A program made the position numbers and the translations under genes. A stretch of DNA of 45,635 bases from an uncultured Bacillota bacterium. GTDB lineage: Bacteria; Bacillota_I; Bacilli_A; RF39; UBA660. Shown piece by piece: positions 1 through 24,450 of this stretch; positions within the stretch are counted from its first letter, which is position 1; each line of letters begins with the position of its first letter. Below the pieces are notes generated by a model. It did not search any database, was not told the origin of the DNA, and saw nothing but the letters and a program-made list of their open reading frames with translations. The stretch lies in the NCBI GenBank assembly GCA_947644695.1, contig CANSAJ010000008.1:1-45635 (forward strand), in the 5' to 3' direction.

Positions 1-1554
1 GGGAATGCAGAAGGAAGTATAGAAGGAAATAAGATAAAGATAGATAAAGTAGTAAAAGATCAAACATGTAGAATAACAACAGAGAAGATAAACTATAATT
101 TAACTATGAATATAACAGGAGGAACAATCAAACCAAGTAATGTAATGGTAGCCCATGGTGAATCAGGAGAATTCACAATAACAGCTAGTACTGGCTACAC
201 ATTAGATAATCCAACAATCACATGTACAGGAGGAGCAAGTCACACTTTAAATGGAAGTACCCTCACTATAAGTAATGTTAAGTCGAATCAGACATGTAGT
301 GTGGTATTGAAAGAAGAGTTAAAGGTGACATTAGTAGTAAATAACGGTACAGGAGGTACAACAAAAACATTAGATTCTGTAGGAGGAAGTCTGACATTTA
401 CAGGAGTATCGCCAAATAGTGGATATGTATTAGATAATGAGAATATGACATGTACAGGAGGAGCAACAATAGCTTTAAGTAGAACTACAGTAACAGTAAG
501 TAATATAAATAGTATTCAGACATGTACGATACCATCGTTAATTGCAACACTTAAAAATAAAATCTTAGCAGATCATCCAACAAGACCTGGGTCTAGACCA
601 AATTTAGATAGTGGAGTATTTACAGATGAAAATACAGGAACTCTTTATACAGCAAGCGGAAATCAGACTGAAGAAGAAAAAACAGTATATTATTTTGCCG
701 GAAATGCACAAGATAACTGGGTAAAATTTGCAGATATATATTGGCGTGTGATTAGAATAAATGAAGATGGAAGTGTAAGACTACTTTATGTAGGTCCAGA
801 TAAGAACACAGAAAAAGGATATATAGGTAAAAGTGCATATAGCACAACATATAATAATCCAATGTATGTGGGATATATGTATGGAAGTAGTGGGGATTTA
901 GCAAGTAATAGAACTAACACAACAGACTCTACAATCAAGGGAGTAATAGATACATGGTATAATAGAAAGATACAGTCAAGCTATGGCAACTATGTAAGTA
1001 AGACAGCAATCTATTGTAATGACAGGGCAAATTCAGGATATAGTATAACGACAGGCTTCTACTATGCTGCGCATAAGAGAATAGTAAATGCAAAGGCTCC
1101 ATCATATAAATGTGGAAATGACAAAAATGGTAATTTATATACAGGAACAAATGGAGCAAGTAATTTAGATAAATTCACAGTAAGTACAAGTACAGGAAAT
1201 GGAAAACTAACGTATCCAGTAGCCTTGATGACAGCAGATGAGATAGTATTTGCAGGAGGGAAATATAGTACAGATGCGCCAGCATATTATTATCACAACG
1301 CTGTCGGAGGTAGCGTAACCGGGTCCACCTCTTGGTGGACAATGAGTCCGCGTAGTTGTGGCGGTAGTAGCTCGGCCGTGTTCCCTGTGGTCAGTTCTGG
1401 CAACTTGGGTAACGCCTACGTTGGCGGTGAGCTCGGAGTACGTCCAGTCCTATCTCTAAAGTCATGCGTAAAATGGAAAAGCGGAAATGGAACGAGCGAT
1501 AATCCATACACAGTAGATACATTAGACTCAGTTTGTTCATCAGCAGAAAATTAG
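1..1554 (+). CDS. Repeat-rich surface protein with hypervariable C-terminal domain (5' end outside window)
   Basis: The frame is open from base 1, so this is the 3' part of a longer gene; the ATG at 106 lies inside a repeat and is not a convincing start. The N-terminal part shows about three copies of a roughly 70-residue beta-rich repeat, each ending in a pattern like VSNVKSNQTC or VSNINSIQTC, similar to bacterial surface repeats. From about base 560 a globular domain begins (WVKFADIYWRVIRINEDG, later LTYPVALMTADEI). It ends in the module YYY-x-GGSVTG-x-WWTMSP, a variable core, then VRPVLSLKSCVKWKSG and NPYTVD. This layout resembles C-type-lectin-like or formylglycine-enzyme-like ligand-binding domains used as variable proteins. 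The core (1351-1443) differs sharply in base composition from the rest, and the module recurs at 9927 and 10285. Extracellular location and ligand binding are inferred; no anchor or signal peptide is visible in this part. Confidence 0.75.
   Translation, partial: GNAEGSIEGNKIKIDKVVKDQTCRITTEKINYNLTMNITGGTIKPSNVMVAHGESGEFTITASTGYTLDNPTITCTGGASHTLNGSTLTISNVKSNQTCSVVLKEELKVTLVVNNGTGGTTKTLDSVGGSLTFTGVSPNSGYVLDNENMTCTGGATIALSRTTVTVSNINSIQTCTIPSLIATLKNKILADHPTRPGSRPNLDSGVFTDENTGTLYTASGNQTEEEKTVYYFAGNAQDNWVKFADIYWRVIRINEDGSVRLLYVGPDKNTEKGYIGKSAYSTTYNNPMYVGYMYGSSGDLASNRTNTTDSTIKGVIDTWYNRKIQSSYGNYVSKTAIYCNDRANSGYSITTGFYYAAHKRIVNAKAPSYKCGNDKNGNLYTGTNGASNLDKFTVSTSTGNGKLTYPVALMTADEIVFAGGKYSTDAPAYYYHNAVGGSVTGSTSWWTMSPRSCGGSSSAVFPVVSSGNLGNAYVGGELGVRPVLSLKSCVKWKSGNGTSDNPYTVDTLDSVCSSAEN
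1351..1443 (+). other. Variable core of the C-terminal domain (GC-rich, A-poor)
   Basis: This is the stretch between the constant codons for WWTMSP and VRP. By hand count it has 12 A in 93 bases (13%) and 55 G+C (59%), inside a gene and genome that are strongly A-rich on the coding strand. Loss of adenines in a bounded C-terminal segment is what adenine-specific mutagenesis by a diversity-generating retroelement leaves in a variable region. The GC-rich zone appears to extend upstream to about 1297. No template repeat or reverse transcriptase is in the window. Confidence 0.6.
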
Positions 1555-9915: not shown

Positions 9916-9926
9916 TTTCTTCTAAA

Positions 9927-10223
9927 GAGGCGACGCCATATTATTATAATGATTCAGGAGGTAGTGTTACTGGAAATAGTTATTGGTGGACAATGAGTCC
10001 GTTTACTTTTTATGGAGATGCTGGTTCTGCATATGTGTTTAATATAGGCGGTTCAAGTGCTTCTGGTTATTTAGGTCATCCGAATGGCGTTGCTGGTAAT
10101 GCAGTAATCCGCCCAGTTTTATCTCTAAAGTCATGTGTCAAATGGAAAAGTGGAGATGGAACAAGTGATAATCCATACACAGTAGATACATTGAGTGCAG
10201 CTTGTAGTACTGCAGAAAATTAA
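9927..10223 (+). pseudogene. Promoterless cassette B: copy of the variable C-terminal module
   Basis: In the frame ending at 10223 the sequence reads a module like the end of the first gene: YYYNDSGGSVTG, YWWTMSP, a different core (10002-10109), then RPVLSLKSCVKWKSG, NPYTVD and a final STAEN. There is no start codon, ribosome site or N-terminal scaffold; the only ATG in frame, at 9861, is inside queH. The cassette follows a terminator, so it is unlikely to be expressed. The constant flanks are nearly the same as in the first gene, while the core differs in length and sequence. It is either a decayed gene end or a silent donor cassette. Confidence 0.7.
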
Positions 10224-10284
10224 TTTATTATTAATTATCAACTATAATATAATAAATAAGGATAATATTGGTAAATAAGTATGA

Positions 10285-10515
10285 ATGAGTCCGTGTGACT
10301 GGGATGGCGCTGCTTCGCTTGTGTTCTACGTATATGGTTCTAGTGGTCCTGGCTTCTTAAATGACAATAATGTTAGTCATTCTTTGTATGGAGTACGTCC
10401 AGAAATTTCTCTTAATATACAGAAAGTTCATAGTAATACTATAGTAGAACTAACTAAAGAGAAACAAATATTATTCAGTGCTTTAAATAAGCAAAAAATA
10501 GAAACATTAAAATAA
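10285..10515 (+). pseudogene. Cassette C: isolated variable core joined to unrelated tail
   Basis: Homology starts exactly at ATGAGTCCG (10285), the first constant codons before the core, and ends just after GGAGTACGTCCA (10390-10401), the constant codons after it. The core (10294-10389) is a third version, beginning CDWDGAAS. The frame then runs through about 40 unrelated residues to a stop at 10515. An ATG is present, but there is no usable ribosome site. Hand count gives 43% G+C and 18% A for 10294-10398, again unlike the surroundings. It lies 62 bases after cassette B in the same orientation. Confidence 0.6.
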
Positions 10516-19446: not shown

Positions 19447-19557
19447 TAATACAATGATGTAAAATATATAGTAACAATATTGTCTTAAATTGAATATTAT
19501 GATAGTATGAAAATATAAAATATAAATTAAATTTTTCTAAGAAGTATGAGGTATTTT

Positions 19558-22500
19558 ATGAAAAAAGAATTAAATTTAAAAGAATTAATTTTAAAATTTT
19601 TTTGCATATTTACTATAGGCTTTATTTTAATTATAAGCGAAATTATATATGAACCCAAAAATGAAAAAGAAATAAAAATACAAAATCAAAATGTTTTTTC
19701 TAATAATAGTGATGAAGTTTTATACTTATCAGATATTCCTTATAAAAAAGCCCAGGTGGGATGGGGAACTTTAGGTTTAGATAAAACTAATTCTAATACA
19801 TCTTTAATAATGAATATTAACGGTTCTTCAGTTGTTGTTAAAAAAGGTATATTTGCACATGCCACTTCAACTGTAGAATATGACATAAGTAGCTATGACT
19901 ATGATTATTTTACTGTATATTATGGATTAAATACAACATCTGGTAATAATGGCAACGGAGTTAAATTTTATATTTATACTTCAGAAGATGGAACTAACTG
20001 GACTTTGCGTACTGAAGAAAATCCTAGTCCTTTAAAATGGGTAAATCCTGCAGTACATGTTAAAATAGATATTAGAGATGCTAATTACATTAGACTTTAT
20101 GCACACGATAACGGCGCTAATGGTAGTGACCATGCTGTTTGGGGCGATGCTAAATTAGTAAAAGAAGGATACTCTGATGATGTTATGAAAACTGTAGAAG
20201 AGTATGATGAAATTATTAAAACAACTTATCAAGCAGGTCCTATTAGTGAAGATTTATCTCTTACATTACTACAACGAAACTTTATTAAAAATGTTGGACA
20301 ATATCAACTTCGCTCATTTCTAGAAAGCGATCCTAAAAATCAAGAAACTTTTGACTGGTTTATAAATAACGAAGAAGCGCTTCGTTTATGGACTGTGGGA
20401 GGAAGACCTCATGGAAGTTACGAAAGGTCATTACAAGTATTAAGTAAGCTATATCATACTTACAAAGAAGACTTATCAAATGAAAATGTAACTGCACTAG
20501 GAACAAAGTATAAAGATTTATATTTAAAAATGATGTTATCATTATCATTAACTCATTCAACTAGTGTTGGATTATGGATTGGTGGAAATCAACTTTCTGA
20601 TGCTGTTATAAGATATGACCTTTTTAAACAACTGCATTTAAATAATGAATTAGCTTCTCCTTCTATGTTTGAAAATTATACAATAGATGAAATGCGTGGA
20701 GTAATGTTTACTAATATTGATGACGAAGAGATAATGTGGTTACATGACTTTTCTAAAAAGAAATCCTCTACAGATCGTTTTAATCCATTTAAATATATAA
20801 CATATACTCTAAACTATAGCTATTATAGACCTCAATATTATAGTCAAGAAAACTATGAAAAATGGAATCAAAAATATGAATTATCAAAATATAATATTAC
20901 CTATCAATCAGGTAAACCAAAATTATGGATTGTTTTTGAAGAAGGGTCTGTATGTGGAGGACTATCAAAGACAGCTGCAAATTTATATGGAGTCTGGGGA
21001 ACTCCTTCATATGTAGTTGGTCAACCGCAACATGCCGCTTATATATATTTATATAATGCAGGAGGAGGAAAGTATGCTTGGCAGCTAGCTTACAGTGTGG
21101 CTGCAACCGGATGGGCAGATACTGATGGAACAGCAATTAACGGCTGGGGAACTAGATATAGAAGCAATGTTGTAAAATCAGGCTCTTATAGACTATTAGC
21201 ACAAGACGCACAAAATGAATATGATAAGTATGAAAAAGCACAATTAATTTTATTATTAGAAGATGTGTATAAAAATGATAGAAATAAACTAGAACAAGTA
21301 TATCTTGATGCACTAAAAGAAGAAAGAATAAATTTAGATGCTTGGATTGGATTAGTAACATTATATATTACTGATGACACAAAAACAGAAAGTGACTTGA
21401 TAGATTTAGCTACAGAAATAGCTGAAGTGTATACATATCATCCACTACCTATGTATGATATGTTAAGAAGAATAGGAACAAAAATAACTTCACCAGAATA
21501 TCGTAGTCAATTAATGATGCTACAAGATAGAACTTTACGAAAGGCAACAAAAGCTACCTCTGCAAACACAATTTACAGTAATGAAGTTCCTATAATTGCA
21601 AATGCAATATTAGGCGTAGTAGATTCTAAAGTTGCTACTTTCTCTTTCAGCGGAGCTAATGCAGGAAAAATAATATTATCTAAACAATTACAAAGTGCTC
21701 AAGTTACATGGAGTTATAGTTTAGACAACGGAACTACTTGGACAGAAGTTTATGAACACTTTATAGAACTTACAAAAGAAGAACTTGATAGTATTAATGT
21801 TAATGATGATATTAAAATACGTATATCAGGGTTACCTCTTACAGCAGAAAATATTTTTACAATAGATATTACAAAAAGAACTTTTCCAGGTGGAATTACA
21901 ATTAATGACCAAGAAGATCGTATTTATGGAACAACTAGTGAAATGGAATGGACATTTGATCCAAAAGATGGCTGGAACTCTTTCGCAAATACTAATCCAG
22001 TACTTAGTGGAAATAAAAAACTTTATATAAGAGTAATAGCTAAAGGAACAGAAATAGCAAGTGATCCAGTATACTATACATTTACTGAAAATAATTCAGA
22101 CGACACAAAATGGTATATCCAATCTAAAAATTTAGAAGTAATAGAAGTAAATGCAACTGGTGCAGGAGACTATAAGAATAATATTTTAGATGGAAACGTT
22201 AACACTTATTGGCGCTCAAAAAATGGGTTAATGCCAGCCTATGTAACAATTAAGTTAGACCAGCCAAGATATATATCTGGAATAGATTATGTGCCAGATA
22301 AAAGTGCTAAATATTTAACTTTTGTTCCATATGGAAGAGGAAAAAATTTAAATATATATGTAAGCATGGATGGTAATAATTGGGAACTAGTAGCATCTAA
22401 AAATAATTTAGGAGACAATGATAATTTAAAACATATTGCAGTTTCTAATCCTAAAAAAGCATTATATGTTAAAGTTGAATGTACATCAGTTTATGATGGA

Positions 22501-24450
22501 GAATATACATTATTTGCTGTTTCAGTAATTAAATTGTATGAAAATATATTAGTAAATGAGACTCCAAGAGCAGACGTTAACTACAACATTACTCGAGCAA
22601 CTAATCAGAATGTAACTGCAGAGCTAGTTAATATGACAAGACCTATTACTGTTCTAAACAATGATCATAAAACAACTTATACATTCACTGAAAATGGAAA
22701 ATTCACATTTGAATATGAAGATGAAAATGGAAATAAAGGTTCTACCACAGCAGAAGTAAATTGGATTGATAAAACACCACCTACACTTGATTTAGAATTC
22801 AACACTAAGGAATTAACTAATCAGGACGTAGTTGTGACACTTTCTTTTGATAAAGAAGTAACGATTACATCAAAAGATGTACAAGTAGCAGAAAATCCAG
22901 AAGACAAAAGTAAGACCATTACATTTACAGAGAATGATTCCATAGAATTAGAATTTCAAGATACATTAGGAAACAAAGGAAGAAAAACTATTACAGTTGA
23001 CTGGATCGATAAAGAAGAGCCAACTGCTGAATTTGAATTTAATACAACAAATTTAACAGATGGAGAAGTTATTGCAACTTTAAACCCAAGTGAAGAAGTA
23101 ATAGTTACAAACAATGATGGAAAAGATTATTATGTATTTAAAAATAATGGTTCATTTACGTTTGAATTTATAGACATGGCAGGTAATCATGGAACAGCCA
23201 CAGTAGTGGTAAATTGGATATCAACATTACCAGAATATAAAATCAAATATTCTACAACAAAACCAACAAATCAAAGTGTGGAAGTTGAACTAGAACTTGA
23301 AGCGGGATACAAAATAGTTAATAATAATGCAAGTAATATTTATATTTTCACAAATAGTAGTACTTTTGAATTTCAGTATATGGATAAAGATGGACATATT
23401 GGAATGATTCCAATAACTGTAGATTGGATTGATAAAGAAAATCCAACAGCAGAAGCTATTTATAGCCCTAATACTTGGACTAATAAAAATGTAGAAGTAA
23501 CACTAAAACCAAATGAAAAGATAAAAATAACAAACAATGAAGGAAAAGATAATTATGTATTTAAAGATAATGGTACATTTACATTTGAATTTGAAGACAT
23601 GGCTGGCAATCCTGGTACAAAAACAGTTGTAGTTGACTGGATTGATAGAGAAGCTCCAACAGCAACAATTGAATACAATATAACAACTAGAACTGATGGT
23701 CCTGTCATAGCAACTTTAAACCCAAGTGAAGAAGTAACAATACTAGGTAATGGACAAAATACACACACATTTTACGAAAATGCTGAATTTACATTTGAAT
23801 TTATAGATAAAGCAGGAAATAAAGGTTACGCTACAGCAGTAGTAAATTGGATTTATTATAAAGAAAACCCTACACAAAATCCTGAAAATCCAACAACTCC
23901 AGAAAATAATAATAATGAAGACAAAAAAAATAAATATCAAAATTTAACTAATGGTAATGTAATAGTCAAAATTCCTGAATCTATCATAAAAAATAATGTA
24001 GATGCAAAACTAGAATATAATGAATTACCTTTAAGTGATGCATATAAAAATCGTTATGGTAAAGATAGCATAATCTATGAATTAGCTTTAAAATCACAAA
24101 ATAAAACTATTGATATATCTAATGAAATTATTGTACAAACTTTAAAATTAAATTCTAATAAAAAGTTTGAAGCCATTTATGCTATCAGAGATGATGGCAG
24201 TGTAGTAAAATTAAACTATACTATAAATGAAAATAATGAAATAGAGTTTAAAGATAATGGATTAGGCAAATACATTATTTCATACAAAACAGAAACAACT
24301 GATAACACTAATAATAATGATAAAAATGATAATAATATGGAAGAAGAACCAACACAAAAGACAAATTATATTCTATACATAGCAATTGGTGCATCTTCAG
24401 TAATATTATTTGGAATTGGATATTCTATAAACAAATCAAAGAAAAAATAA
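19558..24450 (+). CDS. Large membrane-anchored surface protein: NPCBM, transglutaminase-like, F5/8C and Ig-like repeats
   Basis: 1630 residues. The ATG at 19558 is chosen because GAGGT lies five bases upstream; the ATG at 19546 lacks a ribosome site. Order of parts: N-terminal membrane helix or signal (about 12-30); NPCBM-type carbohydrate-binding module (about 66-200, VGWGTLGLDK, FAHATSTVEYD); helical region; papain/transglutaminase-like core with SVCGGLSKTAANL (Cys near 467) and GQPQHAAY (His near 491); F5/8 type C module (about 860-997, ILDGNVNTYWRS); six Ig-like repeats (about 1000-1434), each ending in a form of VDWIDKE-PT; Asn/Pro linker; C-terminal helix near 1600-1620 followed by KSKKK. 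There is no LPXTG. It probably binds glycans or mucin and may crosslink or cleave proteins at the cell surface. It is cargo of element 2. Confidence 0.88.
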   Translation: MKKELNLKELILKFFCIFTIGFILIISEIIYEPKNEKEIKIQNQNVFSNNSDEVLYLSDIPYKKAQVGWGTLGLDKTNSNTSLIMNINGSSVVVKKGIFAHATSTVEYDISSYDYDYFTVYYGLNTTSGNNGNGVKFYIYTSEDGTNWTLRTEENPSPLKWVNPAVHVKIDIRDANYIRLYAHDNGANGSDHAVWGDAKLVKEGYSDDVMKTVEEYDEIIKTTYQAGPISEDLSLTLLQRNFIKNVGQYQLRSFLESDPKNQETFDWFINNEEALRLWTVGGRPHGSYERSLQVLSKLYHTYKEDLSNENVTALGTKYKDLYLKMMLSLSLTHSTSVGLWIGGNQLSDAVIRYDLFKQLHLNNELASPSMFENYTIDEMRGVMFTNIDDEEIMWLHDFSKKKSSTDRFNPFKYITYTLNYSYYRPQYYSQENYEKWNQKYELSKYNITYQSGKPKLWIVFEEGSVCGGLSKTAANLYGVWGTPSYVVGQPQHAAYIYLYNAGGGKYAWQLAYSVAATGWADTDGTAINGWGTRYRSNVVKSGSYRLLAQDAQNEYDKYEKAQLILLLEDVYKNDRNKLEQVYLDALKEERINLDAWIGLVTLYITDDTKTESDLIDLATEIAEVYTYHPLPMYDMLRRIGTKITSPEYRSQLMMLQDRTLRKATKATSANTIYSNEVPIIANAILGVVDSKVATFSFSGANAGKIILSKQLQSAQVTWSYSLDNGTTWTEVYEHFIELTKEELDSINVNDDIKIRISGLPLTAENIFTIDITKRTFPGGITINDQEDRIYGTTSEMEWTFDPKDGWNSFANTNPVLSGNKKLYIRVIAKGTEIASDPVYYTFTENNSDDTKWYIQSKNLEVIEVNATGAGDYKNNILDGNVNTYWRSKNGLMPAYVTIKLDQPRYISGIDYVPDKSAKYLTFVPYGRGKNLNIYVSMDGNNWELVASKNNLGDNDNLKHIAVSNPKKALYVKVECTSVYDGEYTLFAVSVIKLYENILVNETPRADVNYNITRATNQNVTAELVNMTRPITVLNNDHKTTYTFTENGKFTFEYEDENGNKGSTTAEVNWIDKTPPTLDLEFNTKELTNQDVVVTLSFDKEVTITSKDVQVAENPEDKSKTITFTENDSIELEFQDTLGNKGRKTITVDWIDKEEPTAEFEFNTTNLTDGEVIATLNPSEEVIVTNNDGKDYYVFKNNGSFTFEFIDMAGNHGTATVVVNWISTLPEYKIKYSTTKPTNQSVEVELELEAGYKIVNNNASNIYIFTNSSTFEFQYMDKDGHIGMIPITVDWIDKENPTAEAIYSPNTWTNKNVEVTLKPNEKIKITNNEGKDNYVFKDNGTFTFEFEDMAGNPGTKTVVVDWIDREAPTATIEYNITTRTDGPVIATLNPSEEVTILGNGQNTHTFYENAEFTFEFIDKAGNKGYATAVVNWIYYKENPTQNPENPTTPENNNNEDKKNKYQNLTNGNVIVKIPESIIKNNVDAKLEYNELPLSDAYKNRYGKDSIIYELALKSQNKTIDISNEIIVQTLKLNSNKKFEAIYAIRDDGSVVKLNYTINENNEIEFKDNGLGKYIISYKTETTDNTNNNDKNDNNMEEEPTQKTNYILYIAIGASSVILFGIGYSINKSKKK

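What the first reader, a model, noticed from the sequence alone, without database searches (positions are those of the whole stretch)
1297..1443. Adenine-depleted, GC-rich island inside an A-rich gene
The core has 13% A and 59% G+C by hand count, while the surrounding coding strand is A-rich with low G+C. Cassettes B and C are also A-poor (about 20% and 18%) and have 41-43% G+C. Repeated A-to-N mutagenesis from an adenine-rich template explains both the low A and the confinement to one segment. Codon bias or foreign origin would not respect the sharp edges at WWTMSP and VRP.
Basis: partly seen in the sequence, partly recalled or inferred. Interest (0 to 1): 0.7.

Follow-up and report, generated by a model that had tools for sequence, protein, structure and literature searches.

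The report
Variable region with banked RNA templates
The odd adenine-poor stretch is the hypervariable patch of a lectin-like protein that gut bacteria of one genus appear to rewrite by error-prone copying from tandem banks of RNA templates, a known mutation mechanism in an unusual multi-template form.

Summary
Window 1297-1443 is 15.6% A and 59.2% G+C (rest of gene 40.6% A), the most GC-rich 147 nt of the window. The genome carries an Avd-RT-MutS_I operon with the IGxxxSQ motif. In relatives, template cassettes match VR genes with 23 of 23, 16 of 16 and 15 of 15 mismatches at template adenines. What is new is the template side: no template was found beside the RT; templates are ~320-bp cassettes in tandem arrays away from it: 31 in this genome (one in the window, 10248-10476), 134 RNA-model hits in 9 of 9 genus genomes, 0 of 28 others. 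Many share one layout: TATAAT, 5' arm, template, covarying hairpin, 3' arm. In two genomes one cassette core differs from a sister almost only at adenines while the flanks differ at all bases, so templates themselves seem to be overwritten. The exact donor of the window VR was not found, and its homing site has decayed.

The parts
1..1554 (+). Target gene, 5' cut by the contig end (open frame from base 1; first ATG 106): repeat region, then a DUF6273/C-type-lectin-like domain with the VR near the C terminus
   Evidence: PF19789 DUF6273 23.8 bits vs cutoff 23.5; model pLDDT 80, C-type lectin-like neighbours
1342..1447 (+). Variable repeat (VR): part homologous to the template cassettes, ATGAGTCC to GTACGTCCAG; 14.2% A; 23 of 28 inner codons end in C or T (168 of 397 upstream)
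1297..1341 (+). GC-rich lead-in outside template homology; a similar stretch precedes the VR in several paralogues
1451..1466 (+). Decayed homing site: TATCTCTAAAGTCATG where genes closest to templates read TTTCTCTGAAATCTTG
9923..10223 (+). 'Cassette B': 3' fragment of a VR gene without its 5' part; VR-like core 9993-10116
10248..10253 (+). TATAAT, six bases before the 5' arm, as in 29 of 91 cassettes
10260..10269 (+). 5' arm GGATAATATT of the template cassette, complementary to the 3' arm
10285..10402 (+). 'Cassette C': core of a complete template cassette, already A-poor (18.6%)
   Evidence: RNA-model hit 10390-10475, E 3.5e-17 (the model was built with this cassette among its 28)
10406..10464 (+). 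Structured hairpin after the core: TTTCTCTT (10406-10413) with AAGAGAAA (10457-10464), inner stem-loop; pairs covary across the genus
10467..10476 (+). 3' arm AATATTATTC

Best explanation
The island is the variable repeat of a diversity-generating retroelement. An Avd-assisted reverse transcriptase (contig C12 of the same genome) copies a short template RNA, misreads its adenines, and the cDNA replaces the matching 3' segment of one of dozens of dispersed lectin-like genes, anchored by a homing site at the 3' end of the VR. Since A becomes any base and nothing in the process restores A, rewritten segments lose A and, in this AT-rich genome, become GC-rich. Unlike textbook DGRs, the templates form a bank: tandem ~320-bp units, each apparently its own transcription unit (TATAAT, 5' arm, template core, structured hairpin, 3' arm), away from the RT and working in trans. 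Different templates serve different genes, and template cores are at times overwritten by mutated copies, so the bank drifts and spends its adenines. Shown by sequence: A-specific TR/VR mismatches, several templates in one genome, arrays, RNA covariation, A-specific template-template differences. Inferred: that this RT does it, transcription, retrohoming, surface exposure. The window VR is most likely an older rewrite whose donor is gone or unassembled and whose homing site has decayed.
For: TR to VR, mismatches at template A: G004 23/23 and 21/22; G002 16/16 (gene beside the RT), 19/20, 15/15, 16/19; G000 14/16. In these seven pairs, picked as the closest, 124 of 131 changes are at A (A>G 59, A>T 47, A>C 18) though A is 260 of 826 compared bases. 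In G002 several templates of one array are each the best match of different genes. 3'-anchored partial rewrite: gene L061_-2842 matches template L060:16062 over its last 80 nt or so with 8 A and 0 other mismatches and is unrelated upstream. RT with LPIGNMTSQ, Avd (NF033474 E 6e-8, below cutoff) and MutS_I (PF01624, above cutoff) in one operon; best PDB match 8ub7 reverse transcriptase, E 1.5e-26. Cassette RNA: 134 hits, 9/9 genus genomes, 0/28 others; sequence-only alignment of 129 distinct rows shows AU 64/GC 57 and UA 95/CG 22 at helix pairs. Homing site TTTCTCTGAAATCT in 21 of 66 genes, with higher template identity (0.729 vs 0.617, P = 2.5e-4), and in only 1 of 125 cassette-model hits, which is itself a gene. 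Template overwriting: non-A divergence core vs flanks 1/93 vs 14/104 (P 8e-4) and 0/82 vs 14/106 (P 3e-4).
Against: No cassette found matches the window VR closely (best 0.65 of the longer length) and its homing site is decayed. In G000 the mean A content of cassettes (21.7%, n=32 model hits, one of them a gene) is not above that of gene VRs (23.3%, n=32), unlike normal templates. Over all 32 G000 VRs, C positions of one template differ nearly as often as A (0.426 vs 0.452). No cassette lies in the stretches fetched around the RT, so RT and templates are linked by logic and co-occurrence only; 3 of 9 genus genomes with cassettes lack a detected RT (all 74-82% complete). Single-sequence folds of two cassette stretches are no more stable than shuffles (z 0.33, -0.29), and the end-to-end helix is barely better in own than in swapped partners (19.3 vs 18.2).
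Confidence: 0.88

Rival explanations
1. Silent-cassette gene conversion (pilS/vls-like): the cassettes are unexpressed donor segments moved into expressed genes by homologous recombination, and the A bias is old history.
For: Tandem noncoding cassettes plus many expressed relatives look like a donor locus; one gene VR (L058_-9309) is identical but for one base to a cassette on another contig.
Against: Plain conversion would not put 23/23, 16/16 and 15/15 mismatches at donor A. The shared 5' anchor with genes is only about 9 nt, and cassettes carry a covarying hairpin that the gene VRs lack (stem motif in 25 of 31 cassettes, 0 of 32 genes).
Confidence: 0.06
2. The arrays hold retrohoming products: extra VR copies parked outside genes (targets rather than templates), while one undetected master template is the source.
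For: Many cassettes in G000 and G006 are A-poor (means 21.7% and 20.3%); two cassette pairs show A-only one-way core differences.
Against: In G002, G004 and G001 the cassettes are AAC-rich, and in G002 and G004 they match VRs as templates; different genes track different cassettes; the shared promoter-like box and covarying hairpin point to template RNAs; the gene homing site is absent from the cassettes proper.
Confidence: 0.12
3. The window island is GC-rich through codon bias or recent foreign DNA.
For: It is the GC maximum of the window.
Against: The same bounded segment varies in 32 VRs of this genome between conserved WWTMSP and VRP; 23 of 28 codons end in C or T, as expected from AAC/AAT templates.
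Confidence: 0.02

Closest known systems
Diversity-generating retroelement of Bordetella phage BPP-1 (TR, VR, Avd, bRT)
   Same: A-specific TR to VR mismatches, Avd + RT operon, IGxxxSQ-type motif, 3'-anchored replacement, 3' site differing between TR and VR, lectin-like target; a few targets here also have a short stem with a GAAA loop 28-30 nt after the VR (L066, L072, L058), like the GRNA-loop target hairpins in PMC3240598 (passages read)
   Different: Many templates in tandem arrays in trans; many have their own promoter-like box and a covarying hairpin in the template RNA; templates appear to be overwritten
Multi-target and multi-TR DGRs (Yan 2019 PMC6642488; Treponema denticola PMC4891356)
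   Same: Several VRs per genome, remote targets; more than one TR reported
   Different: Yan 2019: 216 of 271 multi-VR DGRs have one TR, and the largest number named in the passages read is 6 unique TRs. Here 31 cassettes in G000 and 67 model hits in G006, as arrays
pilE/pilS and vlsE silent-cassette antigenic variation (recalled)
   Same: Logic of a donor array feeding expressed surface genes
   Different: Donors here act as mutagenised RNA templates, with A-specific changes
DGRs with the MSL accessory (MutS domain I, PF01624; PMC10053308 passage)
   Same: MutS_I-like ORF follows the RT here (PF01624 hit); an ORF similar by eye follows it in relatives L092 and L095
   Different: No TR found beside the RT

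Membership tests
Diversity-generating retroelement | TR/VR pair whose mismatches sit at template adenines | tested here: met
   23/23, 16/16, 15/15, 21/22, 19/20 in relatives; 14/16 in the window's genome. For the window VR itself only indirectly: 15/18, P 7e-5
Diversity-generating retroelement | RT with (I/V/L)GxxxSQ in region 4 (PMC3521204 passage) | tested here: met
   LPIGNMTSQ in L003, the same in L092 and L095
Diversity-generating retroelement | Accessory protein Avd (or HRDC/MSL) | tested here: met
   bAvd E 2.4e-6 and DivGenRetAVD E 6e-8, both below curated cutoffs; MutS_I E 8e-7, above cutoff
Diversity-generating retroelement | TR close to the RT | tested here: not met
   No cassette-model hit in RT stretches L211-L216 or in C12:1-15000; nearest in G000 about 23 kb away on the same contig. 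Usual in surveys, not essential: diversification in trans has been considered for remote targets (PMC10907252 passage)
Diversity-generating retroelement | Homing site (IMH) at the 3' end of the VR, different in the TR | tested here: met
   TTTCTCTGAAATCT in 21 of 66 genes and in none of the cassettes proper; not met by the window gene (decayed). Function of the site is inferred
Diversity-generating retroelement | VR in a C-type-lectin-like target | tested here: inconclusive
   Model pLDDT 80; VIA Z 4.5 to T. denticola variable protein 1 (2y3c), about 3 to Mtd (1yu*), up to 4.7 to C-type lectins; best 9qa6 Z 12.8
Diversity-generating retroelement | RT-dependent mutagenic retrohoming in the cell | not testable with these tools
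   organisms known here from assemblies only
Silent-cassette gene conversion (pilS/vls) | Exact transfer of donor sequence with homologous flanks on both sides (recalled) | tested here: not met
   In the cleanest pairs mismatches fall at donor A only; 5' shared anchor about 9 nt

The most novel reading that the evidence does not exclude
Probability: 0.55. Interest if true: 0.82.

Novelty: new variant of a known kind. Interest (0 to 1): 0.7.

Why it matters
DGRs are usually described as one template feeding one or a few targets, and a published scanner looks for the template close to the RT (DiGReF: 5 kb each side by default, PMC3521204 passage). A bank of up to 67 template units acting in trans joins DGR mutagenesis with the donor-array logic of antigenic variation. 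It also makes a question testable: what keeps a DGR template from being mutated by its own machinery. Here it seems not to be kept, giving a written-back, drifting template pool.

Tried and rejected
Other RTs of the genome are not the DGR RT: L001 looks like a group II intron RT (my reading; not run against a family library), L002 matches retron RT-Protease XI, L005 UG31, L004 is a partial retron-like RT. Ranking pairs by fewest non-A mismatches favours the conclusion; replaced by base-blind selection. Covariation within G000 alone was weak (1 pair with a double change on A2; 6 on A1 with another middle stem); it became clear only with the genus; one search is fitted to the structure, one search is not. 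Single-sequence folding energies gave nothing. The closing helix between the cassette ends is conserved but weakly supported. The promoter scan tool gave no excess in the window (8 vs 5.8); the promoter argument rests on position across cassettes (34 of 91 perfect TATAAT vs 5.1 in shuffles; 29 of 91 best matches exactly six bases before the 5' arm). Foldseek gave one match at E <= 0.001 (9qa6). The DUF6273 profile did not reach its cutoff in four further target domains (two below cutoff, two no hit). In G005 and G006 no cassette-gene pair reached the 80% level.

Rows dropped: 11 of 136 model hits lacked clear core ends; 36 of 136 were left out of the arm test; 33 of 125 lacked a recognisable 5' arm and one more lacked full upstream sequence. 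One search used the 132 of 136 hits longer than 75 nt. Three of 31 G000 cassettes with odd hairpins were left out of the alignment behind the RNA model (A2). VRs were extracted for 17 of 30 exact-motif sites in G002 and 17 of 21 in G004 (sites counted by hand). The homing-site test used the 66 genes of G000, G002 and G004; 5 from G005 and G006 were left out. The 32 G000 VRs come from fetched stretches, not from the whole genome.

Literature: searches listed no paper on template-repeat arrays as far as titles, abstract starts and the passages read show, in the held open-access library. Passages only were read of PMC6642488, PMC4891356, PMC8144416, PMC10907252, PMC10053308, PMC12875486, PMC3240598 and PMC3521204. 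Most subscription papers and all preprints are outside that library.

Full report
What was claimed and what is there. The island is 15.6% A and 59.2% G+C against 40.6% A in the rest of the gene, and it is the GC maximum of the 45.6-kb window. It lies near the end of a gene that is cut at its 5' side by the contig edge. The gene product scores just above the cutoff for DUF6273.

The island is one of many. The same WWTMSP...VRPVLSL frame occurs all over the genome (G000, 1.25 Mb, 56 contigs): the motif TGGTGGACNATGAGTCC matches 31 sites with up to two mismatches, and the reversed control none. I extracted 32 gene VRs and 31 noncoding cassettes from the fetched stretches.

The machinery. Contig C12 carries an operon of an Avd-like protein, an RT with LPIGNMTSQ, and a MutS domain I protein. 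The SQ motif is typical of DGR RTs (PMC3521204 passage), and MSL with Pfam PF01624 is a known DGR accessory (PMC10053308 passage). The best PDB sequence match is 8ub7, a reverse transcriptase (that this is the BPP-1 enzyme is recalled). A close relative of the RT (76-79% identity) is found in 5 of the 8 other genus genomes; the 3 without are 74-82% complete. Named relatives are uncultured Bacilli/Firmicutes assemblies, several with 'Lapin' in the isolate name.

Adenine specificity. Selecting all cassette-gene pairs of one genome with at least 80% identity and at most one gap, blind to base, gave 27 rows; one is a gene found twice. In the other 26, A is the commonest template base at mismatches; the pairs are not independent. 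The best: G004 23/23 and 21/22; G002 16/16, 15/15, 19/20 and 16/19; G000 14/16. In G002 the gene beside the RT matches template L152:2479, two other genes match L152:2830 and one L152:977 best, so several templates of one array are in use. In the seven closest pairs 124 of 131 changes are at A, with 59 to G, 47 to T and 18 to C. One gene has only its last 80 nt or so templated, with 8 A and 0 other mismatches, the rest unrelated: replacement anchored at the 3' end.

The window VR. Its exact template was not found. Against seven A-rich cassettes, 88 of 106 bases match at least one; of the 18 that do not, 15 fall in columns with an A (P 7e-5). Of 28 inner codons 23 end in C or T, as from AAC/AAT. 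The site after it (TATCTCTAAAGTCATG) departs from TTTCTCTGAAATCT(TG), which follows 21 of 66 VRs and goes with higher template identity (0.729 vs 0.617, P 2.5e-4; by genome P 0.006, 0.02 and 0.09). So this VR looks like an older product, probably no longer a good target.

Template units. After the core each typical cassette has a hairpin, TTTCTCTT paired with AAGAGAAA and an inner stem-loop. Within G000 covariation is weak. Across the genus it is clear in an alignment made without structure: AU 64/GC 57 at one inner pair, UA 95/CG 22 at another, four main pair types at a third (129 distinct rows). Many G-U pairs argue for RNA rather than a DNA cruciform (inference). The outer stem motif is absent from the 32 gene VRs. 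A 5' arm GGATAATATT and a 3' arm AATATTATCC could close the RNA (weak), and TATAAT stands exactly six bases before the 5' arm in 29 of 91 cassettes. The RNA model finds 134 sites in 9 of 9 genus genomes (67 in G006) and none in 28 others. No cassette lies in the stretches fetched around the RT.

Templates rewritten. In G000 cassette L058:8083 differs from L058:7748 at 10 A and 1 other base of the core, one-way, while the flanks differ at 14 of 104 non-A positions (core 1 of 93; P 8e-4). In G002, L152:3370 differs from L152:2479 at 7 A and no other base (plus one 6-nt gap), flanks 14 of 106 against core 0 of 82 (P 3e-4). The simplest reading is that a mutated copy of one template replaced the core of another; these are two pairs, picked. 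It would explain why many G000 and G006 cassettes are as A-poor as VRs.

What speaks against. G000 cassettes are on average no richer in A than VRs; over all G000 VRs, C positions of one template are almost as variable as A, so most copies are old or have other donors; RT and arrays are not adjacent; single-sequence folds are not unusually stable. None of this, in my judgement, fits another explanation better.

Comparison. It is a DGR by A-specific TR/VR pairs, RT motif and accessory proteins. It differs in the number, arrangement and apparent autonomy of its templates. Surveys read here in passages mention few templates per element (Yan 2019: 216 of 271 multi-VR elements with one TR, up to 6 unique TRs named). 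Eight searches of the held library listed no report of template arrays. I rate it a new variant of a known kind.

Noticed in passing
L002 (G000:C4:31463-35080): Retron-like RT fused to a protease (PADLOC RT-Protease_XI, E 4e-149), between a restriction-specificity-like ORF and a resolvase-like ORF (the last two judged by eye).
   Followed up: no
L005 (G000:C45:872-4303): RT of class UG31 (PADLOC E 4e-85) next to a NUDIX-like ORF (judged by eye).
   Followed up: no
L004 1345-2382 (G000:C33): Retron-like RT matching only the first part of the RT profile, with an unrelated-looking second half, downstream of a VR gene and a small regulator-like ORF.
   Followed up: no
window 649-1551: The predicted VR domain resembles the N-terminal part of Thomasclavelia ramosa IgA peptidase (9qa6, Z 12.8 over 205 residues, 17% identity) far better than any known DGR target; shared fold only.
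   Followed up: partly
window 1; many G000 VR loci: Contigs often end near VR genes or arrays, probably because repeats break the assembly, so template and target counts are lower bounds.
   Followed up: no
L146 4680-5773 (G006:C46): Three cassettes with identical cores within about 1.1 kb at a contig end: recent duplication of template units.
   Followed up: no
L061 2712-5134 (G000:C3): Genes with another lead-in (WYWTMTS / GYWTMSP) carry tracts of the same templates: the system reaches a second kind of target.
   Followed up: partly
window 19546-24450: A 1634-aa ORF with internal repeats of 100-180 nt (66-80% alike), a possible large surface protein.
   Followed up: no
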